64,000 nucleotides of DNA from Letharia columbiana (Eukaryota; Ascomycota; Lecanoromycetes; Lecanorales; Parmeliaceae): the NCBI RefSeq assembly GCF_014066305.1, contig NW_023501040.1, forward strand, positions 1,282,501 through 1,346,500, given 5' to 3'. Position numbers and translations under genes: made by a program. The stretch's first letter is position 1, and every line of letters starts with the position of its first letter. Shown here piece after piece: positions 5,129-41,728 of this stretch. The notes under the pieces are model-generated. The model did not search any database. It was given only the letters and a program-made list of their open reading frames with translations, and was not told the origin of the DNA.

Positions 5129-5410
5129 GTATATTATAATAGATTAATACGAGTACTTATATAAATAATTATACTTCTTATAAAACGTAATAATAACGTA
5201 GAGTTCTTACTTATAAATAAAGTATTTCTTCTAAGTAGAACTAAAGATAAACGAATTATATAAGATAAATACTTTCTTATTCTTTTCTATTACGATAGAC
5301 TTTTAAGATTATAAAGCTTCTAATAGAGTAGCTTCTTACGATATAAGAATATAATACTATATAATAATATATTTAACTATAAAATCGAAAGTATTAATAT
5401 ATATATAAAC
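5129..5410. other. AT-rich spacer between head-to-head R copies
   Basis: This is 282 bp of AT-converted DNA separating the facing ends of the two inverted R copies. No similarity to either arm and no reading frame was seen. Confidence 0.5.
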
Positions 5411-13790: not shown

Positions 13791-14735
13791 AGAGTCACAA
13801 AAAGATCCGGGCTAGAACCTTTAAAGAATAAGAATAATTAGACTCGTGTGGGTAGAAGAGAATATAGATTCTATAAAAGCCTACGACAGTAGGATCTTTA
13901 TTTCATTAGATCAATCTATACTATATATGAACTAGCTGTAAAAGCCTATAAGGAAGCACCTTCCGACTCCCCTTTTGATACATGTACACCCCTTCAAATC
14001 CGATTAGCTTCCGCGCGGCCGCTAGTCGCAAAAGGTATAAACCCCCCACATAGCTTTCTGGGGAATATTGCCGAGACTCTTGGTGGTAGCAAGGCAAGCC
14101 TTCCCAGATCTCTCCTGATAAAGTCTAAAAGATCAGACGGTTTTAAATCGTCGAATGGTGAGGTCTTTGGATTGTCCTTCTATGGCGATAGCTGATTGGC
14201 TGGCTATCCTCTCTCGTTGCTACTAGAAATACGCTTATCGTACTCGAATATCCACTACCTATTGGTCACCTGGCCTTCCTGCAGCTGAAAAGATATGGTC
14301 TCGTTACCCTGCATGTAGGCTGGCGTACCACGTCCACCTCGCTGTCGACTACCTCGCTGTCCGCCTCGTGTAGTCCCACCTCTTGTAGCCTCGTCTTGCT
14401 GTCCGCCTCGTGTAGCCGGCTATGTGCGGGGTTTATATCTTATGCGGCTAGCGGCCGCGCGGAAGCTAATCGGATTTGGGGGGGTGTACATGTATCAAAA
14501 GGGGGTGTACATGTAATATGTGCTGGGGCGAGTTATAGGGCGTGGCTTCCTTGCAGGCATTTGCAGCTAGCTACATGTGCAATAGCGGCTTGGCCTGGTG
14601 GGATATATCCTGCAGCAGCCTTCCTGCTTCATAGAATAATCAACACCTCCTACCCACCAGAACTCCTCGTCTTCAAATCTGGGCGCGGGCTTCCCAGTAG
14701 TGAAAAGCTTGCCAAGTACTGATTTTTGACTATTT
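13791..14735. repeat. GC-rich island: two LTR-like ends in inverted orientation
   Basis: The arms 13971-14054 and 14419-14502 are near-perfect reverse complements of about 84 bp, containing gcttccgcgcggccgctag and tgtacatgtatcaaaagg. Weaker inverted similarity continues outward to about 13.79 and 14.73 kb. In the right arm a purine run (aaaaggggg) is followed by TGTACATGTAATATG, as at a polypurine tract/LTR junction. The 360-bp centre, read on the minus strand, encodes an RGG-rich tail (TRGGQRGSRQRGGRGTP) before a stop, like the end of a gag protein. The island has almost no RIP-type mutation, unlike its surroundings. It could also be a fold-back element. Confidence 0.6.
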
Positions 14736-15309
14736 TTGATTCTCAGGGAGATCCCCTAAAACCCCTCGGACCCTTCGAGGGCTCTTTAGAACCCGTTTGA
14801 CTACCATCTAACAGCTACATTTTCAAAATAATTTTCTTTAGTCAATTATCAGCCCTACGTCTTCAATACGTATATGAAAATATTATATAATCTTAACGCC
14901 AAGATCAAATTCTAATAGCTGAAATTTTAACTCTAAGGGTAAAAAATATGAAAATATATACTAATTTCTAAAACTTGCTCTAAGATAAGTTTTAAGCCAA
15001 AATGTATACTAAAGAAAAGCGATATTCGAGATTAGATTTCTATAAATTTCTATACTTATATTTAAAAGCGATTTAAATTTTACGCTTTTTTATAATTATA
15101 ATAATTAGACTTAGTTCTCTTAATCGTATATTCTTAAATATTCTAAATATATATAATTATAAATTCTTATTTCGAGAGTTTAACGTTAAAGCGATTACGA
15201 AGTATAATTTATAATTCTCTTAATACGTTATAATACCTCTATTTAAAAAGAAAAGTTGAAAATCTAATCTAATTATATCGAAAATATAACTATTAGATAA
15301 TAGCTAAAC

Positions 15310-17329: not shown

Positions 17330-17337
17330 TTTATAAT
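17330..17337. repeat. 8-bp target duplication, left (TTTATAAT)
   Basis: It is identical to 37267-37274 across the 19.9-kb element. T at position 2 and A at position 7 fit the nTnnnnAn preference known for hAT insertions. The match can be stretched to 12 bp (TATTTATAATTA) if the terminal TA is counted as target. Confidence 0.8.
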
Positions 17338-17562
17338 TACTAGCCGAAAAGGTATAATATAGTATAAGATATTAATCTGCCATATTATACTCTGATATAA
17401 TATAAGTTATTAAGATTTACATGATCCCATACCTAATATAATATGAGATCTTAGCGGGATATCCCACGGTATGGTATATCTATAGTATTATATCATGAAA
17501 TAGTATATATATAGAATATCTCGGTTAGGATTTCTATATTTAGAAGTAGATATTCTAATTAT
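17338..17562 (+). repeat. Left terminal inverted repeat of the hAT element
   Basis: It matches the reverse complement of 37036-37266. Shared blocks include ctagccgaaaaggtataata, gcgggatatcccacggtatg and gatttctatattta. The left copy is more mutated than the right. Confidence 0.85.
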
Positions 17563-17924
17563 TATTCTAGTTAACAACTATACTAAATCAATAAGATATA
17601 GAATTAAATACGATTATATTTTATTACTTTATATATATAAAAGAAAGCGAGCTATATCTGCTAGTAATAAGAAAAGCTTATCTTCCTCTAGTATCAGCCG
17701 CGCGAAATCCGCCGGCACTTCGTAATCAAAGCCGTCGACGATAATTTTATACGTCTATTACGTATTTTCGATATCGCTATCTAATATAAAATTATATATA
17801 TTATAGTTATAGCCTTTTCATTAAATCGTCAATTTAGAAAAGTTAATATATTTCTTAATATCCTCTCAAAAGTATCATAGCTTAATATAATAAGCTATAT
17901 TTCTTTAAGCTACCTTCTCGCGAT

Positions 17925-18610
17925 ATATAAAAAAAGGTTAGATATAGAAAGTATATAAAAGTATATTTAATGATTCTAGAACGAATTAACGATATTTATA
18001 ATAATAATTAGAATTAAGAATTAGATATACTCAAATAAGAGATAGCTTTATACTACTCATATAATAGCGATAGTAGTAGCTAAGATTAAAATATCGACTT
18101 AAATAGCGTAGCTTTCGTAGTAAGCTTTTTATTACTATACGCCAAATTGATTATATATAAATAAAGATCTATAATTTTATCTTCTAGGCGTAATCGCGTT
18201 TAATATTTTAAGATTTCTATAATAGCTCGATATTTATTAGCTAGCGCGTTAATATTATTATATCTAAACTACGATAGCGCTTATTATTAAATTCTATATC
18301 ACACTCTTAAATAGCTTAAAAGATAAGATTTACTTAATTATTAGCGCGTATAATAGAATTATTTTTAACACTTATATCTTATTTAGCTTCGATATCATCT
18401 ATTTCCTCTTAATTTAAGCTTTTATCTTTATCTGCGTATATAATAATTCGCGCGATAAATGGAATTTCAGACTTCTTTATAATCACGCTCGCGTGCTTTT
18501 TTTATATAATACTATTAAAATATAAGTCTACTAAAACGATAACTAGAACTAGAAATTATTTATCGCTTATTTATTATATCTTATCTAATCTACTTAAGAG
18601 CTTATTTCTA
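17925..18610 (-). repeat. Direct repeat A, copy 1 (inside hAT element)
   Basis: About 680 bp is repeated in the same orientation at 20460-21135. Shared blocks include aaagtatataaaagtatatt and gaattaagaattagatatac. On the minus strand a frame with protein texture is visible (RLRLEDKIIDLYLYIINLAY), with RIP-type stops. No family is recognised. It could be a tandem gene duplication or two copies of a small element. Confidence 0.65.
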
Positions 18611-20459
18611 TTATAATAACAATATATTAATATACTTAACTTTACGCTTTTTAATAATTATAGCGTAGTTAATAGCTAAAATATTAGCTTTCTTTACTTT
18701 CTTAACTAGTTTCTCCTTAGACGTAAATATATTTATTCGCTATCGCGATCTCTTAGTATTTTTATTTTAACTAAACTTATTCTTCGCTTTTTATTTTAAT
18801 TAAGAGCCTAGTCGTTATCTAATTAATCTATATCAAAACTCTTTAACATCGCTATCGTTATTAATATTTAATATTTATTATAATAAATTATTAGACTTAA
18901 TCTCTTCTACTTTAATTATTATAAAAAGATAAATTAGTAGATATATATAAAAGAATTAAAGGGCTTATACAAATATTTATAAATACTAAGCTATTCTTAA
19001 TTTTAATCGAAGCTCGTTTTACTAAAAAGTACATTAATTCTAACAAGTATTAATATTAGAAATAAAGAGAATATATATCGCGCGCTATTATAAGTATATT
19101 ATTATAGAGTTTAACTTAAAGAATAATTATTTCTATAAAGATAGTAAGACTTAAAGATAAGAAAGTAAAAATGAAATATATGAAAATTTTAATAAGTTAT
19201 AGTAGTTTAGCGCTAGCTAAATTAGATAAAAATAGTCGCTTACTAGCTCGCTCTCTTAGATCTTTTATCTTTTAATCTATACAAGTTATAATAATAACTA
19301 TAATTATTATAAAAATAGCTAAGATTATATTAAATAATAACACTTAATAAGCGTAATTCGCTTAAGCTTAAATCTTTAAAATTAAAGAGAAAGCACTTTA
19401 CTAATATCTAATTTAAGCTAGATAATATAAAGTAATCTAAAAATTTAGTACACGCGATAGATATCTAAGCTTTTCTTCCCCTCTTCTTTTCCTCTAAGAC
19501 TTTCTTTTTATATTAACTCTTCTTATTATTAGACTATCTTCTTTATACGTTAGACTTCTATTTAAGTAACTTAATATTATTATAGTAATATTAAAAATAT
19601 AACGTAGTCATTAAATTATATATTTATTCTTTATTTTTTAATAACTTTAAGCTAATATATAAATAGATCGCGCGAAGAGCTTAACTTATATACGCTTAAT
19701 CTATTATTAATAAATCTTCGAAAAAGCTAATACTATTCTAGAGTACTAGATATAACATTAAAGTAAAGTCTTTATTAAATACTATCATCACTTTAATCGC
19801 TATTACCACCGCTTTAATAGATATCACTCTTACTTTAATAGTATTAAAGCGTCAATGAAAACTAGATAATATATTCTTCTAATTATTATTATATTTATTA
19901 TATATAACTAACGCGAGCTATAACTTAAGCTTTACGCGAGATTTATCGCTATTAAAAGTTAATTAATCTTATAATCTCGAAGCTTCTCTTTTAACGTCTA
20001 GTTCGTTAGATTATACTTAATTAAAATCTATTAAAGCGCTATTATATTTAAAGATTTACTCTTAAAGTATTATATAAGATAATAGAAGTCTTTCTAATTC
20101 GTTAATTTAAGAGTAAATCTTTTATTACTACGCTTCATAATTAGTTCTAATAATCTCTATTTAAATAGATATTTACCTTTATACGATATATGAAAAACAA
20201 GTTATATTATAGAAAAAGAATCTAAATCTCGCGATTATCTTAACTAAGCCGTTTAGAGTAAAAAAGAGAATATATTTATCTTTAGCTATTAAATTAATTA
20301 ACTATTATAAATATAACTATAAGATATAATTATATATTATTAATTACTCTAATAATTATAAAAAGTGTAAGAGAAATAAAATTATGCAATTAAGTACTTA
20401 TAAACTTTTCTCTTCTAAGTATTTATTTTAATTTAGAGTTTAATCACTATCTAATTAAA

Positions 20460-21135
20460 AAAAGAGTGAGATATAAAAAGTATATAAAAGTATATTTAAT
20501 AATTCTAGAATAAATTAACGATATCTATAATGATAATTAGAATTAAGAATTAGATATACTCGAATAAGAGATAGCTTCGCGTTACTCGTATAATAGTAAG
20601 AGTAATAATTAAGGTTAAAATATTAATCTAGATAGCGTAGCTTTCGTAGTAGATTTTTCATTACTATATATTAAATTAATTACATATTAATAAAGATTTA
20701 TAATTTTATCTTCTAAATATAATCGCATTTAATATTTTAAGATTTCTATAATAGCTCGATACTAATTAGTTAATATATTAATATTATTATATCTAAGCTA
20801 TAATAGAGCTTATTATTAAATTTTATATCGCGCTTTTAAATAACTTAAAAGATAAAGTTTATTTAATTACTAGTGCGTATAATAGAATTATTTTTAATAC
20901 TTATATCTTATTTAGCTTCGATATTATTTATACTCTTATAATCTAAATTCTTATCTTTATCTATATATATAATAATTCACGCGAAAAGTAAAACTCTAAA
21001 CTTTCTCTAAATTACGCTCGCGTACTTTTTTTATATAATACTATTAAAATATAAATCTATTTATTAGAATAATAACTAGACTTAGAAGCTACTTATCGCT
21101 TATCTATTATATTTTATCTAATCTACTTAAAAGCT
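20460..21135 (-). repeat. Direct repeat A, copy 2 (inside hAT element)
   Basis: This is the second copy of the segment at 17925-18610, 2.53 kb downstream in the same orientation. The copies differ mainly by C/T and G/A changes, as independent RIP of duplicated DNA would give. Confidence 0.65.
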
Positions 21136-22969
21136 TATTTCTATTTTTCTATTAAGTCTATTAATTAGATTAAAGTTTATATCTTATTTTTATATAAATA
21201 TCTAATCGCGTATTAAATAATATCTTATTATTTAAGACTTTTAAATATAATCTAGCTAAGAAAAGAATCTATTATATAAAAAATTATAAATCGCGATATA
21301 TATTTTTATAGCGATAGAGAATTCTAATTATTTTTCTAATTATCGTTATTTAAAGATAATTATAATAGCGAAAAATACTTATATTCTTATCTCTAATCTA
21401 GAATTAGAATTATGTAATTAGCTTATTAAGATTTTAGATCTAGATAATCTATACCCTTATAGAGGCGCTTAGATCGCTTAAGTATATTAGCGATATTCTT
21501 ATATATTAATTTAATACTAATAAGCTTAAAAGCCTCTTATATCTCTTCGCTCACCTTATTAAATATAAATTTATATCTCATTATATTATAATTCTTAAGC
21601 CACTATCTAGCCGATTCTAGTAGCGATATCTATCCTTTTTTATCCTTAAGCGCCTATATTACATAGTTTCTAAGAACTATATATTTTATTCTAGTAAAAA
21701 ATATATGCGAAGAAAGAAGATAATAAATTTTTTTAGACTTTATAATCGAAGATAATTAATAAGTAAGTTTGATATAAGTAAGATTAGTATATAAATAACG
21801 AGTCTATTTAAATATAAATTAGAATATTAAAATTAAAATTAATATAGAAAAAAACTTACATTAGTAAATATTGTTTTAACGATTCTTTTTTAAGAAAATT
21901 TTTATAAATTATACAAGACTCCCACGTAATAAAAATAAATATTCTTTTAAGAGTTTATTACATCTTCGAAAATTTCTAAATATTTAATCTTCTTTCTAAT
22001 AGATTTGATTATAGTTTATTATACTCATTACTATAGTAAGAAAATATCGATAAATGCTTCGACCTTTTATACTTATATCTTTTCTGTTAATATTATTATA
22101 AAATCTATATTCTCTAAAAAAAGTTAAGGGTTTTCAAATCGCTTAATTTTTTGATTAATAATATTTAACTATATATCGATAATCATATCTTCATCTTCTT
22201 CCTTTATATCGAGCCACTTATCGCGCTTTATATTAATATCCTTAGTGAAATTTAGAATCAAAACTATATCTAGCGAATCTAATCGTTTATGAAATTTATT
22301 ACCTTCGATATAATATATAAAATATTACGCGTAAATATTAGCTATAATATTAGAAAGATATTAGAATAATTATAATAATAATTAGAATTTATAATAAGTA
22401 TATTGATTATATATAATACGTTCGATAATTCTCTCTTTTATTTTCTTCTTTTTCTTAGAAGTAGCTATTTGATATTTAAAGAAAGCTAGAAGTTTTTTCT
22501 TAGCTATAGATTTCGCTATCGTATCCGCATTATTTTATTTTCTTAAGATTACTCTTAATAGTTCGTATATATTTAAACTTACTAAATACTGGCGCGACTT
22601 TACTATATTCTTATTTTTAAAATATTTATCTACTATTTTTCGCATCTTACTATTATTTAAACCCTTGAAATATTTTCGTTTCTTTAGAGATAATATAATA
22701 GGGCGAATTAAAGCTATTACCTTTATTAATAATATTAGCTTTTATAATATTAAGAAATAATAAAAAGTACATAAATTTACTTATTTAATTAAACTCTTAC
22801 TTAAGATAGTTATAACGATGATTTTCGTATAAAAAGCTTACTATAAGATATTAAAGAATATATTATAAAGAGTATATTAGTATTATAATAGAAACGATAA
22901 GAAAATTTGAGTAGAATTATATTATTATAAAAGATGATATAATTAGAAAAAGTATTAGAAAAGACTGGA

Positions 22970-23260
22970 ATATGAGGAAATTTAAGAACGCGCTAATAAA
23001 AAAACAGGCTAGTTTACTAACGCGTTTTCGCGTTTTTTCGAAATCTCATTTACAAAAATATCCGGTGCTGATTTTCAATATTATAAAGCCGGATTTTAAT
23101 CGAATTTTTTTAAATTTAATAATCTAACTAGAATAGTTAAGGATTATTATTAATAATAGACTTTTCCCAGCTTTTATATAATAATAAACGTTTATTTCAA
23201 GCTTCTAATAATCTAGATCTAAAAATCCCATGAGGTAAGTTTATCTTTTTTGAGATTTTA
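22970..23260 (+). promoter_or_regulatory. Less-mutated stretch before the histone-like relic
   Basis: This segment keeps GC-containing words (gcgttttcgcg, atatccggtgctg, ttttcccagc) while both sides are AT-converted. It ends at ATGAGGTAAGT (from 23230), which reads as a start codon followed by a perfect 5' splice donor. It may be the promoter, start and first intron of the relic that follows. This is inference from position and the donor motif only. Confidence 0.3.
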
Positions 23261-23379
23261 TTTTACGCTTTCGATTTATTATACGCGTTTTCTCTTTTAA
23301 AGAATTATTAGAAAGATGATTAGAATATTAATTAAATCGCTTACTTTTAGAATACTACTTATTTTATATTTACATTTAA

Positions 23380-24740
23380 AAAAATATAATAATAAATATA
23401 GATGTTTTTAATTAAGAATCTTTACTAATAAACTCTTAACTAGCTATCTAATTCTTTAATTCTAAAATAATATCGAGTTAACTAGAAGATTCTAAAAGCG
23501 ATAAATTAGAAAGTTCTCGAAATAATTAATTAGAAAGTTCTAGAGATATTTAATTAAAAAGTTTTAAAAGTGATTAACTAGAAAGTTCTAAAGATAATTA
23601 GCCAGAAAGTTCTAGAAGTAATTAACTACGAGGTTTTAAAAGTAATTAGTTAATAGATTTAGATAGTAATCTATTAATAAATTTAATTATATTAGAAGAA
23701 GAAGAGGTAGATTTTATTACGAAAGAAGCTTAAGATTAGAAACTTCTAGTATATAATAAGAATAATAATATTACGATCTAGCGATAAGTTTTATAGCGAA
23801 TCTATATAAGTTTATTAATTTTAATATATAAGTAATTAATACGGCTAGAAGAAGAAGAAATAACTCTTATAATTCTAATTATTATAATAAGAAAGGGTTT
23901 AGATATAATCTTCTCTTTTCTAATTATTATTCTAATTATCTAACTTTCTAGATTAGATAAGCTTAAAAATACGTTAATAAGAATAAAGAGTTAACGTATA
24001 TATTCGATAACGATATACTTAGCGATAATAACGACACTCTATTTTAAGATTAAACTATCTCTTAACCTCGAGATATTATCTATAAGAATAGAAATTTTAA
24101 TAATATATATAGTGAAAATATTAAAATTATAGTAGTTGAAGGACGTCTACCTATGCGCAAATTATTAAAAAAGAATAAATATAATAAAGAAACTTAGGAA
24201 GAGAAGATCTAGTATGCTTTTAGCGGCGGTCGCGATAGATGAAATAGTATCTCGAATATCGTTAGTAGTAAAAGTAGTTAGAAAGTCGAGTAATAAGATT
24301 TTTAGAAAATCTACTATAAGCGAAAAGAGTATAGATAAAGGAAAAAGCGCCGTTAATTATATACTTAAAGTGAGGAAATTATATAGATTTTATTTAAATA
24401 GTAAGTTTAGCCTTATATATACTTCTAATTATCTTTCTAATTATAGCCTATTAGCTATCGCCCTTCACAAAATTAAATACTATTAGAAGTTAACTACGCT
24501 ATTAATTCCAAAAGCTCTATTTTAAAAACTCATTCGAGAAATTTCGTTAAATATAATAGATGAAATCGAGAATAATATTAAGTATCATTAATAAAGTTCT
24601 ATTATCGAGGCGATATAGAAGGCGGTAGAATCTTTTCTATCTAATAATTTTTTAAGTAAGACTTTTTATTATTCTTATATGAAATTCGCTAATAATAGAA
24701 TATAGATACTTAATTACTAACAATTCATAGTAAACGCATA
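23380..24740 (+). pseudogene. Decayed histone H3/CenH3-like gene inside the hAT element
   Basis: One plus-strand frame runs about 450 codons. It has a Ser/Glu-rich repeat region, an acidic and Pro/Thr-like tail, a basic stretch (RKSSNKIFRKSTISEKS) and a C-terminal histone fold from about 24450. Short matches to H3, in order: ALHKIKYY (H3 ALREIRRY), LLIPKALF (LLIRKLPF), KLIREIS (RLVREIA), KAVESFL (EASEAYL). In-frame stops fall where H3 has glutamine: TAG at 24484 (Q55), TAA at 24523 (Q68), TAA at 24589/24592 (Q85) and TAG at 24616 (Q93). The Q55-Q68 and Q85-Q93 spacings are identical to H3. Loop 1 is about five residues longer than in canonical H3, in the direction of fungal CenH3. The last helix is less clear. 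The gene is dead as it stands. Confidence 0.7.
23490..23678 (+). repeat. 24-bp coding minisatellite (8-residue repeat)
   Basis: About eight units of 24 bp, such as aattagccagaaagttctag plus agt, lie in frame with the histone-like relic. Each encodes an 8-residue unit like (S/N)(D/N)QLESS(R/K) once TAG/TAA are read as mutated Gln codons. The multiple-of-three length and kept frame argue it was translated. Confidence 0.65.
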
Positions 24741-25773
24741 ATATTATAAATTAAGAATATACTACTTTTATATAGGCTTTTAAAATTATATAATATTAAG
24801 CTATACGTAAATATAAAGATAGATTAAAAGCTTATAGTTTAGTTTAGATAGATTATTAAATTACTATAAATAATAGAATAAAAAACTTTATAATTAAATT
24901 ATCGACTTTCTTAACTTATAATATAACTCTTAATTATAATATTACTTATAAGATTATATTCTACTTCGAATTCTAATTATCTTTAAAATTAATATTATAT
25001 AATATATTTAATTTATAATTTAAAAGATTTATATTATACTAAAGAATTAATAATTTTTATTATTATAAAATTATTTATATTATAATTATAGTTTTAATAT
25101 AAATATATATTATATTTTCTTATCTAATTATTAATAATTATATATTTTTATAGATTCTTATTATTATATTAAAAAATAAAAGATTTTATTAAAGTCTATA
25201 TATATTTAATTATTATATTAATCCTTAATTTAGAATTCTAATCATCTTTATAATTAATATTATATAAGATTATTAAATTATAATTCTAAAAAATTATATT
25301 ATATTAAAAAATTAAAATAAGTTATTATTATAAAACTATCTATATTATAATAATAGTTTTAATATAGAAGTATATTTATTATACTTACTCATTTAATTAA
25401 TAAATACTATATTTATATAATAAATTCTTATTATTATCTTAGAAAATAAAAGATTTTAATTAAAATCTATTAGATATTTATTCATTATATTAATCTTAGA
25501 TTCGTATTCGACTTAGAATTCTAATTATCTTTATAATCAATACTATATAAAGTATTTAATTTATACTTTTAGAAAATTACATTATATTAAAAATTATATT
25601 CTATTAAATTATAAAAAAATCTATTATTATGAAATTATAAGTATTATAAGTATAGTTTAAATATCTTATTTTCTTATTTAATTAATAAGTATTATATTTA
25701 ATAATAGATTTCTATTATTATCTTGAAAAATAAAAGATTCTATTAAAATCTATAAGATATTATATTTTTTACG

Positions 25774-26236
25774 AGTAAAGGCCTACGAATTAAATTTATA
25801 ATCATTTTTTTAATTAGAACTATCGAGTAAATAGATAAGCGATCTTTAGTAAGCGAACTTTGATAAGCGGGCTGTCCGGCTGTCGAGCGAACTTTGATAA
25901 GCGATATTTGAATTCCTTGCGCTTTAATAATTATCAAACTAAATTTAAAAATTCTTTTTTTATCTGAAAGTTCTTATTTCGTTCTATAATTTTAGAAAGA
26001 AATCTTAAAATCTTAATAGAAAATAAAAAAGTTATTCTAAAATTAAATAATGTATATCTATTTTTTAATTAGGGCTATTCGATTACATTTTTTTTATAAT
26101 TGCGAATATTAATTTATTTATCCGCGATAACTTAGTCGATTTAATCAAAGAGCGTAGTAACTCTAAATTTATAATTGATTATATATATAAATTTAAGATT
26201 TTTAAGCTTAGTCCTATCTTATTCTATTATATATAT
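25774..26236 (+). repeat. Repeat family R, internally deleted copy
   Basis: It begins AGTAAAGGCCTACGAATTAA as the R elements do. It ends with the R terminal block (tataaatttaagatttttaa through tcctatcttattctattata). The roughly 1.6-kb middle with the tandem units is missing. It lies inside the hAT element, so R was active after or during the life of that element. Confidence 0.65.
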
Positions 26237-26748
26237 TAGTAGAATTAATTACTAATTGCTAACTAACTCATTAGCGTATAATTAAGCTCGCGAACTTTTC
26301 TTTAGATTTAAACTTCAATTCTTCTTCAAGTTTTTTATTATATCTATTTTATTCTTCTTTATCTAAAAATCTTATAATTTTATAATATTAATTATTATCT
26401 TAAGTTTTACGCGAGCGTTACGAATTGAGATAAAAACGATAAGCTTTTTATATACTACTTCTTCTTTTTTTTTTTTTTTTTTTATTTATTATAATATTAT
26501 AATAATTAGAAAGATAATTAGAAAGATACTTAGAAGTTATATTTCATTTTCTTCTCGTAGAGTATCTTTTAAATACTATCGTTTATAGGTCTAGTAAATA
26601 TATATACTATGAAATTAACGTAATAGTAATTTCATATAGCGAGAAGATAAATGATAATAGAATTATAAATAATCTATTATTAAAAGTAGAAGATAAGGTT
26701 CTCTATTATTATAAAGTGAAATTAAATTTATAATTTTAATTATATATA

Positions 26749-28150
26749 TAGAAGTAGACGATATAGACGATCTTCAGCGAATACTTCGCGATAATAATCT
26801 TTTAGCTAAATCCTTCTTATTTCTATCGCTATTAAGGTTCCGTAGTTATTTAATTAATATTAAAAATTATAAGCGTAAAGCGATAGAAGAGCTCTCTTAG
26901 AATTCTTATACTATTAAATCTCGTCGATATACGATAGCTCTCGAAGCATATAATTCACTTAGAGCTCGCTTACGAAAAGTATATAATGTCGATCTTAGTG
27001 CGATATTAATCGCGAGAGGTAAAGTTAAAAATATAGATAGATTTAAAAGCGTAAGTTTAGAGGAGTAGAAAAAGATATTATAAGAGGTTAAAGATATATA
27101 TTTCTATAAATAATAAGATCGACTATATTATAGTATTATCAGATATTAATATATATGATTTTTTTATTTAATATTCTAAAGGGAAAGTATATATCTATAT
27201 TAGCTATATAATTAAGTCTAAATAATTAAGAATAGAAAAGCGTTATTAATAACGATGAGAGTATAATCTCGTAATAGAAAGATTTAATAGAGGAGAAAAT
27301 GTTAAATAATCTTATCTATCTCGCAATTCTAAGATAAATAGAAAAAGAGGAAGAATAAGAGATAAGTATATTATTAGATAATAACTTAAAGCTATTAATT
27401 AGATTATCTAATATAATTAAGTAATCTCGTAAGTAGAGATTACTTCTTATCTTTATAATAATTTAAAAGTTTTAATAGAGGGCTTATTAGTCTCTACGAG
27501 CGAAAATAACGTATATTAACTCTTATAACTACGAATCTTATTATGCGATTAAGATATATAAGCATAGAGGTTTTACGATATAGAATTATTCTTCTAAGAT
27601 CGATTATAAGGTACGCTATTATTATTCCTCGCGCATATAAAATTATCAACTTATGATTTTTAGATTGGAAAAATATATAATTGTGTGTGAACGGATCCTA
27701 TAGTAAATGCCCTTTTTATTTATTACTCTCTCTTTAATAAAAGTATACTAAAAATTACCTAGACTAATTAATTAAAATTCGACTCTATTACCTTTATACA
27801 TTTATTTTAATAAGATCGAGCGCGTAGTATAGAGGAATTTGATAGTATAGTAGTTTAATATGAATAATAATAATTTTCTAGATTTACTAGGCTCGACTAA
27901 ATAATAGTTAAAGAATTACGATTATACGCTAAATGAATAAGAGCTAGATAAAGACGACGATAGAATAGAAGAGGCCTTTCGAATAATAGCTAATAACTAT
28001 AATGATAAGGTTTTAAATCGCTTTTTATTCTTATTATCGAGATATAAATACTTAGATATAAGAGCTTAAAAGAAGAGATTATAATAGATTTCGCTATCTA
28101 TTAATTAGAAAGATACTTAGAATTCTATAATATAAATTCTTTTCTCTTAT
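26749..28150 (+). pseudogene. Unassigned decayed coding region in hAT element
   Basis: The plus-strand frames keep protein texture over more than 1 kb, with stops mainly TAG/TAA. Examples are EVDDIDDLQRILRDNN near 26.75 kb, then ALEAYNSLRARLRKVYNVD and ILIARGKVKNIDRFKSVSLE near 26.9-27.1 kb. I do not recognise a family. It may be cargo of the transposon. Confidence 0.35.
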
Positions 28151-28645
28151 ATCGAACGCTAATTCTTAGAGTCTATAAATCTTTTTTAAGATAATTAAGA
28201 GGTAGTAGACTTATTAATATATTACTTAATAGCTCTTTACCGCCGATCTCTTAATTCTTTATAAAAGTTACTTTTTATACTTAATAATAGCGAAGCGATA
28301 ACTTTATATTATTAAGTTTTTAGCCGTTTACGCCATCTATCTTATAAGTTTTTTTAATATTTCTATTAAGAGTTATAATCGATTTTAAGATATAATTCTT
28401 TTCGACTATAATATCTTTTTTACGCGGCGAGTACTTTCTACTTATAAGTGTATCTAGAAATAGATAGTGCTTCTCGATTGAGGTTTGTATCTCAGATATC
28501 CATATTCGTTAGGCGTGCGTTTTTCTTCGAACCTTCCTTCTTATTAGCTTTAATATTTCTATTAAATTTACCCTTATCTTTCTTTCTTAACTTTTCAACT
28601 TTTTCTTCTTCGATCTTACGAATAATACCTTAAATTCTTACTATT

Positions 28646-28745
28646 ATATTGAATTCTTACTTCTAATTTAATTTATACTAAGTTCGTTTACGACTATTAT
28701 TTAGCTTGCGATACTATAGAATTCGAGAATTCGAGATTTTATTTT
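28646..28745. repeat. 100-bp direct repeat, copy 1
   Basis: It shares ttcttacttctaatttaatt and gcgatactatagaattc-like blocks with 29300-29400 in the same orientation, about 655 bp apart. The function is unknown. Confidence 0.5.
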
Positions 28746-29299
28746 ATACTCCCGATATATATATATAATTAATATTGTCGCTTAAGATTCTTCGTTAAAG
28801 TAATTACCGTTACGCCCTAAGCGTCCCTTTACTCACTTATATTCGATACTCTTTTTTCTCTTATACGCGTGATAGACATAGTCGATTCTATAATCTAGAT
28901 CTTAAATCTTAAACTTCGCGTAGAGCTAGAATAATACTTCGTAGTAATTAAGTATAAATTTCTAATTCCCGACATTTAGTTGAGTTTAAAGCGTACTTTT
29001 ATAGATTAAAAAGAAATATTTATTAATTAGTCTTTAATCTCGATATCTTTATTTTATTAAATACCTTTATAGATAAAGCTATTAACGATATAAGAATATA
29101 GAGATAATAGGAATTTTATACTCTCGTAGATTATCTTAATAAGCTTTCGTGGGAAAAATCTATATTTATAAGTTATTCGAATTCTTATTCGATTTATAGG
29201 CGCGTTTTATAGTTCGACTATATCTTATTTATATAGGTCGATACTAAGTGCTATCTCTTTCTTAGCGACCTTCTTATTAATAATATAGATCATATTTAG

Positions 29300-29400
29300 A
29301 TTCTTACTTCTAATCTAGTTTATACTAAGATCGTTTATAGCTATTATTTGACTTACGATACTTTAAAATCTAAGAATCCGAGATCTTATATTTCGTATTA
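29300..29400. repeat. 100-bp direct repeat, copy 2
   Basis: This is the second copy of 28646-28745. The differences are mostly C/T and G/A. Confidence 0.5.
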
Positions 29401-30039
29401 GAATTATTAGCTACGTATTTATTCGGATAAGAAATTCTCGCTAATAAAGGGGATATAAAGAGATTATCGTTAGAAGAATAAATTTATACGTTTTTCGGTG
29501 ATTAGAAAGATAACTAGAATTCTATTCTATATCAAGTATCTTAACCCTCTTCTATCTGAGTAAAGCACTTTTAACTATCTTATTCTTATTATTTACGCAC
29601 TTTCTCTTATTATATATCGATGTATTATTTATATAAGCTCTATATCCTTAATTATTAATATAACTCTTTTACTATAAATAGCGTAGAGGTTACTAATTAT
29701 ATAATTTATTAATAGAATAACGATTTGATAGAAAGCTAATATACGATGGAATTTCGATATTAGAGCCGCTTCGATAGTTTCTTATAACGTATTTAATATA
29801 GAAGCCTAAATTCGTATAGTACGATAAGGTGGTAATATCATATTAATAATCTCCCATATTACACGAGCGAAAGGTCTTTTTAAAAGAAGTAAATTAGTTG
29901 ATTTCTGATATCTTTTAATCTCCCATAAAGCAATAGCTAAAATATTATTAATTATATATATATATTACTTATTAATATATTATATTACTATACTTACTTT
30001 CTTACTTTTAATATTAATTTTTAGTCTTTATAAGTAAAG

Positions 30040-30430
30040 ACCTCGATATACTCTTTCTTGCGGTCTTTGCACCGGAAGCGCAAATAACTAAAGGCTTACC
30101 TCGTTCGGTTTTTTTCGCGATTATCTTTTTGCGGTTAGAAGACTTTAAGATTTTCTTTTAACTTGAAGCCCTAATGTAAAAATTAAATGGGCGATTATTC
30201 GGCTGATTATTTATATCGTTAAGAAGATTATTAAGATTCATATTATCTTTCGAATAGGCCGACTCAGTACGTAGATCGATATCGCTATCTCTATGTGACG
30301 GTGGTGTAATAAGATCGCTATCGGGATTAATAATTATTAGCGATATATTATTATTAAGTCAGATTAAGGCGGACGAGATAAAATGATTACGGTATAAAAT
30401 GTCGATAAGAGAAAATATTTAAGATGCTAA
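30040..30430 (-). pseudogene. Unassigned coding relic with basic tail, weakly mutated
   Basis: The minus strand reads as a protein-like frame with a single TAA at a probable Gln codon. It has an acidic/Ser stretch (SNPDSDLITPPSHRDSDIDL), an Asn-rich middle and a Lys/Arg-rich end (KKILKSSNRKKIIAKKTERG) that would suit nuclear localisation. Base composition is less AT-biased than on either side. No known domain is recognised. It is a further candidate cargo gene of the hAT element. Confidence 0.4.
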
Positions 30431-30789
30431 GAAAGAAAGAAAGAGAGAATTTCTACTTATAGCTTTAATATTTTAAAACCTATCTAGCGTTATACTAGCG
30501 AAGCCTATCGAATTTAATTTATTAAATAACGCTATATAATATAATAATTATACTTCTAATTATTATTATAATTATACTAGTTAATTTTAAAGAAACTAAT
30601 CTTTTAGCTAGAAGATTTATATCTAGATATTTAATAACTATATATTAGAATATACTTACTTCAAATTCTAGATATAAATATCTTTACTTTTAGACGAGAT
30701 AAAGAAGCTATAGATTTAAGACCGGATATTACTAAGGGTTACCTGCTATTTTCTATTATATTTCAGCTATTTACGATTATTAACATACT

Positions 30790-31433
30790 CGCTAATAAGA
30801 AAGACGTGCTATTGCTATGCGAATTTAATCGCGATATTAGTAATAACTATGAGAATTAAAGCTATCGAATATAGGAATACCCGCTAATAAGAAAGGCGTA
30901 CTATTGCTATATGAATTTAATCGCGATATTAGTAGTGACTATAGAAACTAAAGCTATTAAACGTAGGAATATCCGCTAATAAGAAAGGCGTACTATTGCT
31001 ATGCGAATTTAATCGCGATATTAATAATAACTATAGGAATTAAAGCTATCGGACGTAGGAATACCTGTTAATAAGAAAAGCGTATTGTTACTATGCGAAT
31101 TTGGTCGCGATATTAGTAGTAACTATGGAAATTAAAGCTATTAGATATAGGAATATCCGCTAATAAGAAAGGCGTACTATTACTATACGAATTTAATCGC
31201 GATACTAATAGTAACTATAGGAATTAAAGTTATCGGATATAGGGATATTCGCTAATAAGAAAGATATACTATTGCTATGCGAATTTAGTCGCGATATCAG
31301 TAGTAATTATAGGAATTAAAGCTGTCGAATATAGAAATACTCGCTAATAAGAAAGGCGTGCTATTACTATACGAATTTGATCGCGATACTAATAATAACT
31401 ATAGAAACTAAAGCTATCGGGCGTAGAAATACA
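30790..31433. repeat. 92-bp tandem array, seven copies
   Basis: The marker cgctaataagaaaggcgta recurs at 30790, 30882, 30974, 31066, 31158, 31250 and 31342, each exactly 92 bp apart. The array ends at 31433. Units differ mainly by C/T and G/A, so RIP acted after amplification. As 92 is not a multiple of three, the array is unlikely to be coding. Confidence 0.9.
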
Positions 31434-33879
31434 ATCTTCGATTTAGTATAGATTCTAGAATAAGAAGTCTCTTTTACTAGAGTAATAGCATTTTTGCGAG
31501 TATATATTTATATTTAAATCGATTTAAAGAGTTTTATTCTATAAATATAAAATATATAAAGTTATTAGATTAAGTATAATAGCTAAATATTATTAATTAA
31601 GCGTAATAAATAGAATAATAATTAGAATATCTTATCCTCAACTTAAAATAGTTTTCCTTTTATTTATTATATATTTTCTTTTTATAAAAACTACGTCTAG
31701 ACTTTAATAATACTATATTATTGCTTATAAGCTTATATTTTATTATAATTATCTAAGAAGCTATATATCTTTCGATTGTAAAGTAATTCTTTTTATATAA
31801 AATGTATATAATTAAGCCGCTAGATATTAGTTAATAATTTTCTTTATTTATAATTATTGAAGAGTAAGTTATATTATTAAAATCGCTCGCTAATTTTATC
31901 TCTATAGCTTCTTAAAGTATCTATAGTATAGAGGTTTAAATTCGAAGCGAATTAATCGATTTTGAAGCTATATAAGTTAAGATCTCCTTTACTATCTAAG
32001 CGAATACGATTCAAAAAATAATTAAGTTCGTTAATCTCTACTATTCGCGAATTTCCTTTAATGTATAGACTTTTAAGTCTAATTAGTAATAATATAATTA
32101 ACGCGTATAATTAACTTACTATCTAGTTTAGATATATATAATCGATATAACTACGCACTTTTCTTATTTATAGCTATACTTTTCAAACTTCGCGTATAAC
32201 CTCCTAATCTTCGTCTTCGCGAAGTCTTATTTTTACTTCGCTTCGATAATTTAGATAAGTCTAAATTAGTAGTTAATAAATTATTAGTAATTTCCTAAGC
32301 TTTCGCGATTATCGAGTTAATGGCTTTAATAGATAATAATACTATATATTAACGAATTATAATTAATATTATAATTAATTATTATATTAAAAGGTATAGC
32401 GCTATTAGGCGTATATTTATTTTATAAAAATAATACTATTAATCTAATTTAATTGTAGAGTATAGGGAAAATAATTTTATTTTCTTTAGATATAGATAGT
32501 ATCGTAATAAATGAGTATATTATAATATAAATATTATAATAATAAAAAGAATTTTTAAGAAAGAAGAGGGTGGATTAGAAAAGAATAATATTAAGTATTT
32601 ATTATTAAGCTAACTAATATTATATAACTAAAATCTTATTAAAATAAAATATTATTTAAAGATAGATTAAGTTTAAATATTAATTAGAAAGCTAACTAGA
32701 AAAAGAGGTTAACTTCTTTTTTACTAATACGCATCGTAGAGCTATATATAAGCGCTTCTTCTTATATTTTAAATATACTTTAGATATTCACAGCTGTATA
32801 TATACGCCCCCTTCCGTATTCCGTATATATTTCGTATATTTCGGTATTCTTTATATACGCGGTATATCTACTAAAGATGATCTTATTAATTTAATTAATT
32901 TCTATTTAATCTTATATTTATTAGTTATAAGAAGAGCTTTTTATTTTAATATTATAACTTTATTAATTCGTTATTCTTAGACGTCGGGCCGCGTATAGCT
33001 TATAATTAATTTACTTACTTTTTTCTCTCCTTCTATTATAAAGATAGGAGAAGATATTATTTCTTTTTCGCCTTCGCCTATAATAAACTAATTATCGTTT
33101 TTATAAGATTAAAGATATTGGCTTAAAGATAATATTACTTAATTAAAAGCGAAGAATACGATATTTTAATATTTTAATATTCGAGTAAAAGATATTATAA
33201 TATTACTTAAATGAAAGAGAGCTATATTAATAAAAAAGATATTAATATTTAAGAATAGTCTTAGCGCGATAAAAGGTTTAATCTCTATATATAGGAGATT
33301 TAGATAATAATTAGTTTAGCTAATTAAATTATTAAAACGTCTAAATTAGATTTTAATTCTATATTAACGCTTAATAAAATAAGTTTAATAATTCTAAGAT
33401 ATTAATATATATCTTTATTAATATAGCTAGCGACTAGAATATTAATTAAATAGATATAGTTTCTAATTTTAATAATTGAAATAATATAACGATAAATAAG
33501 TATTAGTGTTAAAGCGAATAGAGTATATATTATATTAAGTAGAAAAGCGTTAATAGCTAGACTAATTAGAGTTTTAAATTAATAAAGTTAAATATTAATT
33601 CTATATTAGTATTATTATATACTCTTAAATATATAACTATTAATTATAACGCTAATTAGAAAGAATTAATCTTTAATTTAAAATATTAAGAATAATATAG
33701 CGATATATTATTAAAGCGGTATAAGTTATTAAAGCGATATAAGTTTTTATTATAATAAGAAGATAGGATTTATATATTAAATATTAATCCCGTTTTATTT
33801 CTAATATTTTATTTATTTACGTATCTCTTTTAATTTCTCTTTAAATGTCTTAATCTTAAGATGTTAATTAGACCTCTAT

Positions 33880-36830
33880 TTAGCGTAGGTTTAACTTTCT
33901 TAATCGACGATACTTAGTATAAGATATCGACGAGTATATTTTAGCATAAAGATAGTAATAAATCTTACTTTCTTTTTGATATTAATAATAAGAAATAATG
34001 AATATAATAGTAAATGAAGATAGTATAGACTATATAGAATTAGTTTAAATCTAGTAATAACCGTTAACCTATTTATTAAGGCTTAGAAATTAGAAAATTT
34101 TAGAAGTAGATATAATTTAATAAATATACGCTCGTCGATTCTAAGAAGCTATATATTATTTATCGTTACTGCGATAAGATTCTAATTTATTTATTTATAG
34201 ATTATAAAATAAGCGGTATAATAGTATATATTAAGTCTAAGGAATATATTAAGAAATCTAATTTAAGTAGTTTATAATAAACGAATCTAGTCGATAGTTA
34301 TAAAAATTAGATATATTTCTAAATTAGACGATATGGATTATTAATAAATAGAATGATAAATAGAATATCTAGCTTACTATTTACTCTAGAAAAGATAATA
34401 TTAAGATTCTCTTATAACACTAGAAGGCCGAAAGCTTATACGCGAAGACTTCTCGAAATAATTTCGTCGCTGAATTATAAATACCAATATTCCATTTACA
34501 ATCGCTGATAATTCTAAGATATTACGACTCTTACGCTATCTCGACTCTAATATATAATTAAAGTTAATATTTACTATAAAGAATTAGCTAATAAAAAAAG
34601 CTATAGAGTTAGAGGTGAGATTATTAAAGAATTTACTAGTCGATAATATTAAAGTCTCTCTAACTCTAAATTATTAATTATCTTATAACCGCTAATTATT
34701 TATAATAATTCTAGCTTTTTTTATTAATATTAATTGATAATAATATAAGATTCTTATAGACTTTAAGTATATCGAAGGTAAATATACTAACTAGAAACTT
34801 GCAAGTATTATTAATTTAATTCTCGTAGAATATAAGATTTAATTTCGTATATTTAGACTTATAATTAATAACGCCAGTAATAATAATATACTCTTCGATG
34901 ATTTAATTGCTTATCTTTCTATTTTCGTAATAAATAACTCGCTTAATATTAAAGAATTTGAGTTCTCGGATTATTTATAATATATTTTTTATATAGCGTA
35001 TATTATTTAATTAGCCTTAAAAGAACTTCTAGATAATATTAGAATTACTTTAATAAATAAAGAATTTTAAAGAAGCTAAGGTAATAAAGAAGACGAGAAT
35101 TAAGTTCGAATAAGTATAATTAATCTATCGATGACCCTAATAAAGATACGATATTTCTTATTATTATTCTAGTTATTATATTATTAATTATATTAAGATT
35201 CGAAAAATTATTATATATATTAATGCTAGCGGTTAGCGTAAAGAGATCTTTTTTATATTATAAGCTAAATGGCTTTAAAATAAGAATATTTTAGTATTAG
35301 ATAAATATTAATTTTCTAAAAAAAAGTAATACTATTAGAGACGCCCTCTTAAGCTTTTTTAGAATATTAAGACTCGCTAAGATTTAACTTATTAGATATT
35401 AATCCGCGCTCTACTTCTTTATATTAATATTATATACTTCTTAAAGAATAGATTAACTATTTACTTAAGATTAAGTAATAAGAAATAATTATAAGTAAAA
35501 ACTATAGTCTAGATATCTAAATAATTTTTAATTAATTTCTAATAGATTTAATATTTGATTTAGCTTACTAGGTCTTTTTATAAATTTATAAAATTAATAA
35601 ATAGAGAAAAGGAGGCTATAATTTACTACGTCTTTAATGTTTATAATTATCTATTTAATTATATAAATAAAGAGCTCGGAAAATTAAGAAGAAAGAGGAT
35701 TTCTTGAAAAAAAGAATTTCTTAAAGCTTTTAAGGCGGCTCGCGAGAAATTAGCTATCTACTATAGTCGAACTTAATTACATTTAAGCTATCTATACGAA
35801 TAAGTTACGCTTTTATATTTAAATTATAATAATATAAAATTAAAGAAATTAAATTAAAAGGTTAATATTAAAAAAAAGCTATAGACGGAGGTCTACTAAA
35901 AAGCGCTTAAAAAGATATTTTAAAATTATTAAAATATTAATATAAGTAGTTAATTATAAAGAGCTAAGCGAATAAGTTAATCGAATAAGAATACGCTCGA
36001 TTAAGCGATAGAATTTGAGATTAAGAATTTAGACGATAAGGATAGATATAATTAGCTTTAGTGATATAGAAGAAATAGTAAGTCTTCTAATTATTATTCT
36101 AGTTATAATCTTACTTCTAATCTTTATAAAGCTTCTTTTAATAATCTAGCGAACCTCCTAATTCTAAAGTAATAAAAGAAATTAGAGTTTAAATACGCTA
36201 TAGTCGCTCGAATAACTTATAATATTCTTTATTCTCCCGCGAGGGCTATTACGTATAAGCGATACTTCTTAATAACTAAAAGATATTATAATACTTAGAA
36301 GCATTATTTACTAGCGATATTCTATACTCTAATAATAATTCTTTATATAAAGTATTAAGAAAACGAGCTTAAATGGGCTAGACTTAATCTTAAAGGAGAT
36401 CTTAGTATATCGAATTAGATTAAAAGAGCTAATAATACTTTATATAAAAACTTAGTTAACGTTTATAATAATTATATTAGCGAAGATAACGAGCTTACGA
36501 AAAGTACTTCGATAAGTTTAATATTTATAAGTTTATTAAGATATATTACTAATACTCTATAATATATAGAGAAATAATTGATAAATTTATAGTTAGAGAG
36601 GGTTAGTAATAATAGATTTAATCTCGAAGAAGAGGTTTAAGATAACTCGAGAAGCGAATTTATCTATAAATAGTTAATAAGTTTAATTAGATAGAGGTAG
36701 ACTTAAGATATTTAATAGAATTAAGATAGAGTAGAATAGAAGAGTAAGTTAAGATTTGAGAGAAGGACGAATATAAAGTTTATTAAGCTTATCTAACGCG
36801 TTAAGACGAATATATAAATAGAGATAATTA
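33880..36830 (+). pseudogene. hAT transposase, RIP-inactivated
   Basis: Plus-strand frames show the hAT layout in order. A BED-type finger remnant lies at about 34.14-34.26 kb (YRYCDK followed by IIVYIKSKEYI, spacing C-x2-C then H-like positions). The catalytic RNase H-like core is at 34.64-35.05 kb, with a stretch like SLTLNxQLSYN, then DFKYIEGKYTNQKLASI and NNASNN, matching hAT 'TLDxWTS', 'DFxxLxGxHxGxxIA' and 'TDNAxNN'. A helical region follows at 35.4-35.9 kb (NVYNYLFNYINKELGKLRRK). The C-terminal dimerisation block is at 36.2-36.4 kb (AIVARITYNILYSPA), matching the hAT 'LAxMAxDxLxIPA' motif. Many TAG/TAA codons and D-to-N changes make it non-functional. It lies close to the right terminal repeat. 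Confidence 0.75.
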
Positions 36831-37035
36831 TAGAATTTTATCCTTATAATATTTAAAGATTTAAAATTTAGAATATTCTTTTATATTATAATTTTAAGAA
36901 GAAGAATAGAGACGTTTATAGTTCTAATTATTATTCTAATTATTAATATTAATAAAAAGATAAATAGCTATATTAAATTACTCTTTATATTCCCTCTCTC
37001 TTAATAAAGAAGAATAAATATATTCTATATATCTC

Positions 37036-37266
37036 AGTCGGATTATTCTATAAATATAGAAATCTCAGTAGGGATATCTCATATATATACTATTCCATGG
37101 TATAATTCCATAGATATACCATACCGTGGGATATCCCGCCAAGATCCCGAACCCATATTAGAAAAATGGTATGGTATCCGACCCTACCCATATCATACCC
37201 GGGTACGATATAGTATCACTTGATATGGAATATCCCATGGGATATATTATACCTTTTCGGCTAGTA
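37036..37266 (-). repeat. Right terminal inverted repeat of the hAT element
   Basis: This is the inverted partner of 17338-17562. It is less RIP-damaged, keeping atatcccatgggatat, gatatcccgccaagatcccg and related GC-containing blocks. Confidence 0.85.
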
Positions 37267-37274
37267 TTTATAAT
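37267..37274. repeat. 8-bp target duplication, right (TTTATAAT)
   Basis: It is identical to 17330-17337 and directly follows the right terminal repeat. Confidence 0.8.
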
Positions 37275-41099: not shown

Positions 41100-41728
41100 T
41101 TTAATAACTAAGTCGGCGAGAATATCGCTTCTCTTTCTTTTTCCTAGAGTAGCGACGATCTTATATAGAAAGTTAATATATTAATTAACGACTATACTTT
41201 TATATCGAGTTAACTCTATATATTACTCATTTATATATAAATCTTCTTCGAAATTATCTACTTTAATTAGTCTTATTATATCGAATTCGCTAAATACTAT
41301 AAAGATATATCTCGCTAATAATATATACGTAGTCTTATACGTTAGCTATAAAAGTATATTCGATATTATTCTTAATACTAGCTCTATTAAATACCTCGAT
41401 ATCTATTATATAAATCTCTATAGCTTATTCTTATTCTATCTATACTATTTTATATCTTAATAATTAATTTTATTCTCGCTCTACTAACTTCTACTAAAGA
41501 CTACGATATAATTATATTTATTATTAATAAATTTTCTAGAAGAATTACATTAATTTCTAATAAGTCGATTTTTATTATTAAGAATTAAGTATATTATCTA
41601 CTCTAATAACTTCGAAAGATTAATTAAAGATTATTAAAGTAAATTATTTTAAATTATAATTATAAATTTTTTAGTAAATTATAAAAAGCTCTTTTTACTA
41701 AGCTAGATATTAAGTTATTATATTTAAT
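41100..41728 (+). pseudogene. Gypsy integrase, N-terminal part (interrupted)
   Basis: The zinc-binding and core start of a gypsy integrase are readable: EFAKYYKDISR, YIRSLIR, then LYxIPRYLLYKSL and IINFILALLTSTKDYDIIIF (family: TLDFILALP...). The core continues to KALFTKLDIKLLY, where the R element interrupts it at 41729. It resumes at 43790. Confidence 0.8.

What the first reader, a model, noticed from the sequence alone, without database searches (positions are those of the whole stretch)
23380..24740. Histone H3/CenH3-like gene carried by a giant DNA transposon
A decayed frame in the 19.9-kb hAT element ends in a histone H3-type fold. In-frame TAG/TAA codons fall exactly where H3 has Gln (positions 55, 68, 85, 93), and two of the intervals are gapless against H3. 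Loop 1 is longer than in canonical H3, in the direction of fungal CenH3, and the N-terminal tail is very long with an 8-residue repeat. I know of no described hAT element with histone cargo. A mobile H3 variant could influence chromatin or centromere identity.
Basis: partly seen in the sequence, partly recalled or inferred. Interest (0 to 1): 0.92.

Follow-up and report, generated by a model that had tools for sequence, protein, structure and literature searches.

The report
Fungal transposon with four histone genes
A 20-kb fungal jumping gene, now wrecked by the fungus's mutation defence, carried not one but four different histone H3-like genes; histone-carrying transposons of this kind were already published, but a set of four that looks as if it was kept working before it was destroyed is a new twist.

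Summary
A RIP-mutated H3-type histone fold lies at 24451-24776 (+), inside a 19,929-bp element (17338-37266) with identical 20-bp termini and a perfect 8-bp target duplication. Each has its alpha-3 segment behind an intron or insertion at one shared site. H4, H2A and H2B queries found nothing. H3-A-type and H3-B-type matches stand at 68 genomic places each. Five full copies compared were near-identical before RIP. A RIP-immune purine/pyrimidine test shows that the paralogues diverged under protein constraint (codon positions 1/2/3: 102/38/147 differences of 408). New here are the doubled size, four diverged H3 genes, a shared non-host intron site and evidence of past selection. CenH3 identity is unresolved (loop 1 is long, other features are H3-like). 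hAT identity rests on TSD, TIR and the published parallel; no transposase was found.

The parts
17330..17337 (.). 8-bp target site duplication, left (TTTATAAT)
   Evidence: identical to 37267-37274
17338..17357 (+). left terminal inverted repeat, TACTAGCCGAAAAGGTATAA (differs by transitions from TACTGGCCGGAAAGGTATGG, seen at less mutated copies)
17929..20757 (+). direct repeat of 2,529-bp period (17929 and 20458; the second unit is cut short here); 12-kb relatives carry two fuller units and so H3-C twice
19929..20239 (+). H3-C: exon 1 19929-20112 (aligned fold to 20108), intron about 20113-20168 (56 nt), exon 2 about 20169-20239
   Evidence: Pfam PF00125 17.8 bits, below cut-off, in copy L050
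23478..23652 (+). 24-nt x 7.3 repeat (8-residue repeat) in the frame upstream of H3-A
24451..24776 (+). H3-A (the reported gene): exon 1 24451-24655 (aligned fold to 24651), intron 24656-24705 (GTAAG...TAG, 50 nt), exon 2 24706-24776
29623..29940 (-). H3-B: exon 1 29940-29745, 48-nt in-frame insertion or intron about 29744-29697, exon 2 about 29696-29623
   Evidence: (PF00125 31.1 bits, over cut-off)
30785..31420 (.). 92-bp x 6.9 minisatellite inside the element
31746..32064 (-). H3-D: exon 1 32064-31875 (aligned fold to 31879), intron about 31874-31820 (55 nt; no GT donor in the nine copies printed), exon 2 31819-31746
   Evidence: the H3-B protein query finds two other H3-D copies, C20:309523 and C1:385607
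37247..37266 (-). right terminal inverted repeat
37267..37274 (.). 8-bp target site duplication, right (TTTATAAT)

Best explanation
This is a dead copy of a cut-and-paste TIR transposon of the H3-carrying hAT kind known from Mycosphaerellaceae, in an enlarged 20-kb form that carries a private family of four H3 variants. Shown: TIRs, an 8-bp TSD, an empty site for a sister, four H3 folds, a shared break site before alpha-3, dozens of copies, near-identity of five compared copies before RIP, near-saturation of CpA by RIP, and codon-level constraint on the H3 proteins before RIP. Inferred: while the lineage was alive the element expressed these H3 variants. They paired with host H4 (no element-borne H4 was found) and entered host nucleosomes, most plausibly at or near the element. 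Their altered tails then made that chromatin a poorer substrate for H3K9-methylation silencing, or otherwise helped expression or mobility. RIP later broke every copy that I read. The functional step is my best guess, at about 0.3.
For: Boundaries and TSD; empty site for a 12-kb sister with an 8-bp overlap of its two flanks. Four H3 folds and no H4/H2A/H2B; mutual homology of the four folds, hhalign 91-98%. An alpha-3 segment for each, with the break at one site where host H3 and host CenH3 are uninterrupted (break ends read by eye). 68 H3-A-type and 68 H3-B-type places; 44 of 68 H3-A have an H3-B downstream on the opposite strand at 4.4-6.6 kb, 57 of 68 within 16 kb. Five full copies differ pairwise by 10-12%, of which 94-99% are transitions (26 to 105 transversions per 18-20 kb). 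RIP-immune R/Y test: 102, 38 and 147 of 408 differences at codon positions 1, 2, 3; 0 of 20,000 permutations reach it. K115 and K122 are kept in all rows read; H113, R116 and D123 (recalled H3-H3' contact residues) are kept or changed by transitions. Published parallels.
Against: No transposase was found in any frame scanned and none of the genome's PF05699 or PF04937 hits lies in the window, so 'hAT' is by TSD, TIR and analogy only. 7 of 12 elements checked show no clear 8-bp TSD. Every copy read is broken, so there is no evidence of expression or function. The R/Y test shows constraint on the proteins but not where it acted: separate captures of already diverged H3 genes would also give it, although the shared break site argues against that. 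The two trees disagree about how the paralogues group.
Confidence: 0.6

Rival explanations
1. Neutral passengers: host H3 transcripts were captured by the transposon and simply amplified, as proposed for P. fijiensis (PMC6710886); the H3 genes have no role for the element.
For: Published model with RIP-killed copies and no host introns in the captures. The host H3 intron after AKR (read by eye) is absent in all four genes here, whose second exon runs through that point.
Against: Four paralogues 31-44% identical to each other keep the fold, the break site and strong second-codon-position conservation (38 versus 147 differences), which free-drifting passengers would lose. The 10 elements whose gene content I counted all carry at least two H3 folds, H3-D among them.
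Confidence: 0.25
2. The genes are transposon-borne CenH3 (CENP-A) variants that could affect centromere identity.
For: Loop 1 is longer than in H3 in all four (about 14, 11, 10, 12 residues for A, B, C, D versus 8; host CenH3 12, my count). H3-A matches S. pombe Cnp1 best in the PDB. B, A and D score higher with host CenH3 than with H3 by phmmer, B and D also by hhalign. R/Y differences at codon position 3 are fewer to CenH3 than to H3 for B (18/26) and D (22/30), and the R/Y tree puts B+D next to host CenH3 at 66%.
Against: H3-C scores higher with H3. None of the 60 PDB rows shown for the H3-B profile is a CENP-A; 59 are named H3. R/Y differences at positions 1+2 to H3 versus CenH3: A 21/28, B 25/24, C 18/19, D 24/29. 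H3-D alpha-3 reads like fungal H3. The amino-acid tree leaves all four outside the cellular H3+CenH3 clade (99%).
Confidence: 0.1
3. The element belongs to another superfamily with 8-bp TSDs (for instance KDZ/Zisupton or P; recalled), or the forms seen are non-autonomous and were moved by an unrelated transposase.
For: No transposase domain in six frames of the window copy or of the first 10 kb of a 12-kb copy; the genome's PF05699 and PF04937 hits (5 and 1) are not in the window. 0.75-1 kb elements with these TIRs exist. The one intact hAT transposase read (C79) has no such TIR within the 9 kb fetched.
Against: RIP is near saturation, so absence of a detectable domain is weak evidence. The published sister elements with the same TSD length, similar size (9.5-9.9 kb; the C9 form here is 9,396 bp) and two H3 copies, one with a 16-residue insertion as in H3-B, have a hAT DUF659 domain.
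Confidence: 0.2

Closest known systems
H3-carrying hAT family of Pseudocercospora fijiensis and relatives (Dhillon et al. 2019, Mobile DNA, PMC6710886)
   Same: RIP-killed TIR elements in AT-rich blocks, 8-bp TSD, 20-bp TIR, H3-like sequences in many copies, one of two copies with a 16-residue insertion (as H3-B here), host H3 intact. The 9,396-bp C9 form here with two H3 genes is about the published 9.5-9.9 kb.
   Different: The window element is 19.9 kb with four diverged H3-like genes; alpha-3 lies behind a break at a non-host site; no DUF659 found; evidence of past protein constraint. TIR sequences could not be compared (in figures and supplements, not held as text here).
H3L element of Pyrenophora tritici-repentis (Manning et al. 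2013, G3, PMC3538342)
   Same: hAT-type TIR element carrying an H3-like gene in many copies, in long and short forms.
   Different: 5.6 and 2.3 kb, one H3L gene, little RIP, hAT dimerisation domain present, 26 very similar H3L genes; the 2019 paper finds no similarity between its hAT and the Mycosphaerellaceae ones.
Pack-type gene-capturing transposons of plants (named in PMC8616336, passages seen)
   Same: Class II elements that capture and amplify host genes; captured genes can be under purifying selection.
   Different: Those shuffle fragments of various genes; here one histone family is multiplied inside one element.

Membership tests
Histone H3 fold (PF00125, H3 type) | Match to the histone profile above cut-off | tested here: met
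   H3-B 31.1 bits, cut-off 26.4. H3-A 21.4 (14.7 in the whole frame) and H3-C 17.8 are below it; H3-D was not reported by Pfam.
Histone H3 fold (PF00125, H3 type) | alpha-N, alpha-1, alpha-2 and alpha-3 segments, H3 rather than H4/H2A/H2B | tested here: met
CenH3 (CENP-A) | Longer loop 1 than H3 | tested here: met
   all four, 2 to 6 residues longer (my count)
CenH3 (CENP-A) | Groups with CenH3 rather than H3 | tested here: inconclusive
CenH3 (CENP-A) | Centromere localisation | not testable with these tools
   needs an experiment, and all copies read are broken
hAT superfamily | 8-bp target site duplication | tested here: met
   exact in 4 and 7 of 8 in 1 of 12 elements checked; 7 of 12 without a clear TSD; empty site with 8-bp overlap
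hAT superfamily | Short terminal inverted repeats | tested here: met
   20 bp identical at both ends of the window copy
hAT superfamily | hAT transposase (DUF659, hAT dimerisation) | tested here: inconclusive
   none found, but RIP is near saturation
Published H3-carrying hAT family of Mycosphaerellaceae | Same TIR sequence / nucleotide similarity | not testable with these tools
Published H3-carrying hAT family of Mycosphaerellaceae | Host in Mycosphaerellaceae | not tested

The most novel reading that the evidence does not exclude
A transposon lineage that kept and diversified its own set of four H3 variants under selection for a long time, as working parts of the element (for example to remodel or un-silence chromatin at its insertions), rather than as a captured passenger.
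Probability: 0.4. Interest if true: 0.8.

Novelty: new variant of a known kind. Interest (0 to 1): 0.5.

Why it matters
The published account treats the Mycosphaerellaceae cases as capture of a housekeeping transcript followed by death through RIP. Four diverged H3 genes with codon-level constraint suggest instead that some transposons maintained private H3 variants. That would make the question of whether mobile elements edit host nucleosomes to escape silencing directly testable in relatives with little RIP, such as the H3L element of Pyrenophora. It also suggests that the 16-residue 'insertion' reported in P. fijiensis may be a break-site feature shared across the family.

Tried and rejected
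Chance match: rejected. H4, H2A or H2B partners in the element: none. Coding frames from hard-stop maps, stop density and period-3: uninformative because CpA sites are nearly saturated. The compact C9 copy as a source of real divergence: only 21 purine/pyrimidine differences in 8,505 aligned bases. Transposase by Pfam on six frames of the window copy and of the first 10 kb of a 12-kb copy, by PF05699 and PF04937 in the genome, by phmmer and hhalign with the C79 hAT protein: nothing in the element (best phmmer row 3.1 bits, E 1.9, in a copy's stretch upstream of H3-A; best hhalign 0.6%). The last 1.95 kb of that 12-kb copy (L051) was not scanned with Pfam. Homologues in the 5.8-billion protein set with the H3-B alignment: 739 candidates, none at E <= 0.001. 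A common N-terminal domain upstream of the four H3 folds: best hhalign 6.4%, not credible. AlphaFold of H3-B read through (pTM 0.35, mean pLDDT 72) was too weak to use and was not searched. An early idea that H3-A has no intron was wrong and was replaced. An early lean towards CenH3 origin was dropped.

Full report
Setting. The left 46 kb is mostly 14-30% G+C with GC-richer patches near 4-7, 14 and 42 kb, and CpA is almost gone outside the patches, the mark of repeat-induced point mutation (RIP); the right part is about 50% G+C and bears genes.

The element. Identical 20-bp termini lie at 17338-17357 and 37247-37266, and TTTATAAT flanks both sides. The element is 19,929 bp. The 15-base terminus with up to 1 mismatch occurs 85 times in the genome, against 6 for the reversed control. 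A less mutated form, TACTGGCCGGAAAGGTATRR, is found without mismatch at 41 places; several are paired at 0.75-1 kb, and two such short elements that I read are not RIP-mutated. Of 12 elements whose flanks I compared, 4 have an exact 8-bp duplication, 1 has 7 of 8 with one transition, and 7 have no clear one. A 12-kb sister (C143) has an empty-site counterpart at C79, where its two flanks (95% and 85% identical) abut with an 8-bp overlap.

The reported histone. With X at each stop a 175-residue piece matches PF00125 at 21.4 bits, E 3.1e-4 (14.7 bits, E 0.038 within the whole frame), and PDB H3/CENP-A chains, best S. pombe Cnp1 at E 5.4e-5.

Three more. A Pfam scan of six frames gave a second H3 on the minus strand at 29.6-29.9 kb with 31.1 bits, above Pfam's cut-off (first seen). 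Reading the copies revealed a third on the plus strand at 19.9-20.2 kb (PF00125 17.8 bits, E 0.0041, in copy L050), and a phmmer scan with host CenH3 a fourth on the minus strand at 31.7-32.1 kb. Host CenH3 and human H3 queries hit these places, while H4, H2A and H2B had a best E of 6.9, 32 and 2.6. Of 198 six-frame profiles made from the copies, the top 10 against H3 are on these four genes, including the separate exon 2 of H3-D. H3-A exon 2 ranks only 12th there (1.3%), and an unexplained profile at 28.1-29.3 kb minus ranks 11th (2.3%). The four folds match each other by hhalign at 91-98% (31-44% identity).

Shared break site. In H3-A, H3-C and H3-D the break lies after alpha-2, in phase 1 of the residue matching H3 Asp106 (lengths about 50, 56 and 55 nt; no GT donor is left for D in the nine copies printed). 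H3-B has an in-frame 48-nt insertion at the same place; a GT donor is there, but an AG acceptor would have to be lost (ends read by eye). Host H3 and host CenH3 are uninterrupted here. The published P. fijiensis element has a 16-residue insertion in one of its two H3 copies, the same size as in H3-B.

Copy number and forms. H3-A protein search: 81 rows, from which I dropped 13 (split pieces of one copy, other H3-like types, host H3), leaving 68 places. H3-B: 81 rows, 13 dropped likewise, leaving 68. The tool calls such counts lower bounds. 44 of 68 H3-A places have an H3-B on the opposite strand 4.4-6.6 kb downstream and 57 of 68 within 16 kb. Three forms: about 19.3-20.8 kb with C, A, B, D (window and four others); about 12 kb (one 15.2 kb) without A and B but with D and the H3-C unit twice; and one compact 9,396-bp form with B and D. 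So copies lacking the reported gene exist, but the 10 elements counted all carry H3 genes.

Age and state. Five full copies differ pairwise by 10-12%, and 94-99% of differences are transitions (26 to 105 transversions per 18-20 kb). CpA is nearly absent from all five, CpT sites vary. So these copies were nearly uniform when RIP struck.

Selection before RIP. RIP makes only transitions, so purine/pyrimidine states are immune to it. Over 68 gapless codons of window H3-A, B, C and D, differences summed over six pairs are 102, 38 and 147 of 408 at codon positions 1, 2 and 3; 0 of 20,000 within-codon permutations reach the observed excess of position 3 over position 2. The H3 proteins therefore diverged under constraint. 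Pairs are not independent, and the test does not say whether constraint acted inside the element; the shared non-host break site suggests divergence after one origin.

H3 or CenH3. Pointing to CenH3: long loop 1, the best PDB match of H3-A, higher phmmer scores of B, A and D with host CenH3, and fewer R/Y differences at codon position 3 for B and D. Pointing to H3 or neutral: alpha-3 of H3-D, H3-C's scores, the PDB rows of the H3-B profile (59 of the 60 shown named H3, one only 'Histone domain-containing protein', none CENP-A), and R/Y differences at positions 1+2. The amino-acid tree puts cellular H3 and CenH3 together (99%) away from all four; the R/Y tree pairs B with D (87%) near CenH3 (66%) and A with C (61%). 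I leave the origin open.

Class. Pfam scans of all six frames of the window copy and of the first 10 kb of a 12-kb copy found no domain but the histone. None of the genome's 5 PF05699 and 1 PF04937 hits lies in the window, and the intact hAT transposase at C79 has no such TIR within the 9 kb fetched. hAT is inferred from the 8-bp TSD and the published relatives.

Literature. Six searches found the two key papers. Manning 2013 (passages) describes a 5.6-kb hAT with an H3L gene in Pyrenophora tritici-repentis. Dhillon 2019 (abstract, Results, first of two parts of Discussion, Methods) describes 471 RIP-killed hAT elements with 784 H3-like copies in P. fijiensis and the same kind of event in five relatives. 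A 2026 Pseudocercospora paper cites it (passages). The listings of these six searches showed no paper on an element with four H3 genes.

Function. No copy read is intact, so function is inferred: element-borne H3 variants pairing with host H4 and altering chromatin at the element. Contact positions recalled for the H3-H3' interface are kept or changed by transitions (its 25 H3-A rows include 4 repeats of the same copies, its 7 H3-B and 11 H3-D rows 1 each).

Noticed in passing
window 3781-7400 and 41700-43650: A second, GC-richer repeat family, in part little RIP-mutated, in direct and inverted copies, with frames of GEHCGETKRQQG-type repeats; a similar frame lies near a hAT dimerisation hit at C8:308340 (L046).
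   Followed up: partly
window 13893-14719: GC-rich block (46% in 14001-15000) with 100- and 176-codon open stretches inside the AT-rich region.
   Followed up: no
G000 C7:67839-68800, C52:13600-14370, C92:88902-89933 and others: TIR pairs 0.75-1 kb apart, that is miniature elements of the same family; the two read (L054, L055) are not RIP-mutated, perhaps because they are short.
   Followed up: partly
L050/L051 (C1:1616924-1628976), L052/L053 (C143): In these two 12-kb copies the outermost 1-kb windows are less RIP-mutated than the interior.
   Followed up: no
window 30785-31420: 92-bp x 6.9 minisatellite between H3-B and H3-D; the unit number appears to vary among copies.
   Followed up: no
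G000 C79:54627-56876 (L073 3128-5377): An intact 750-codon frame with hAT DUF659 and dimerisation hits, not linked to this TIR family.
   Followed up: partly
C9:382511-391906 (L041): Compact 9,396-bp form carrying H3-B and H3-D, about the size of the published P. fijiensis element; no matching TSD.
   Followed up: partly
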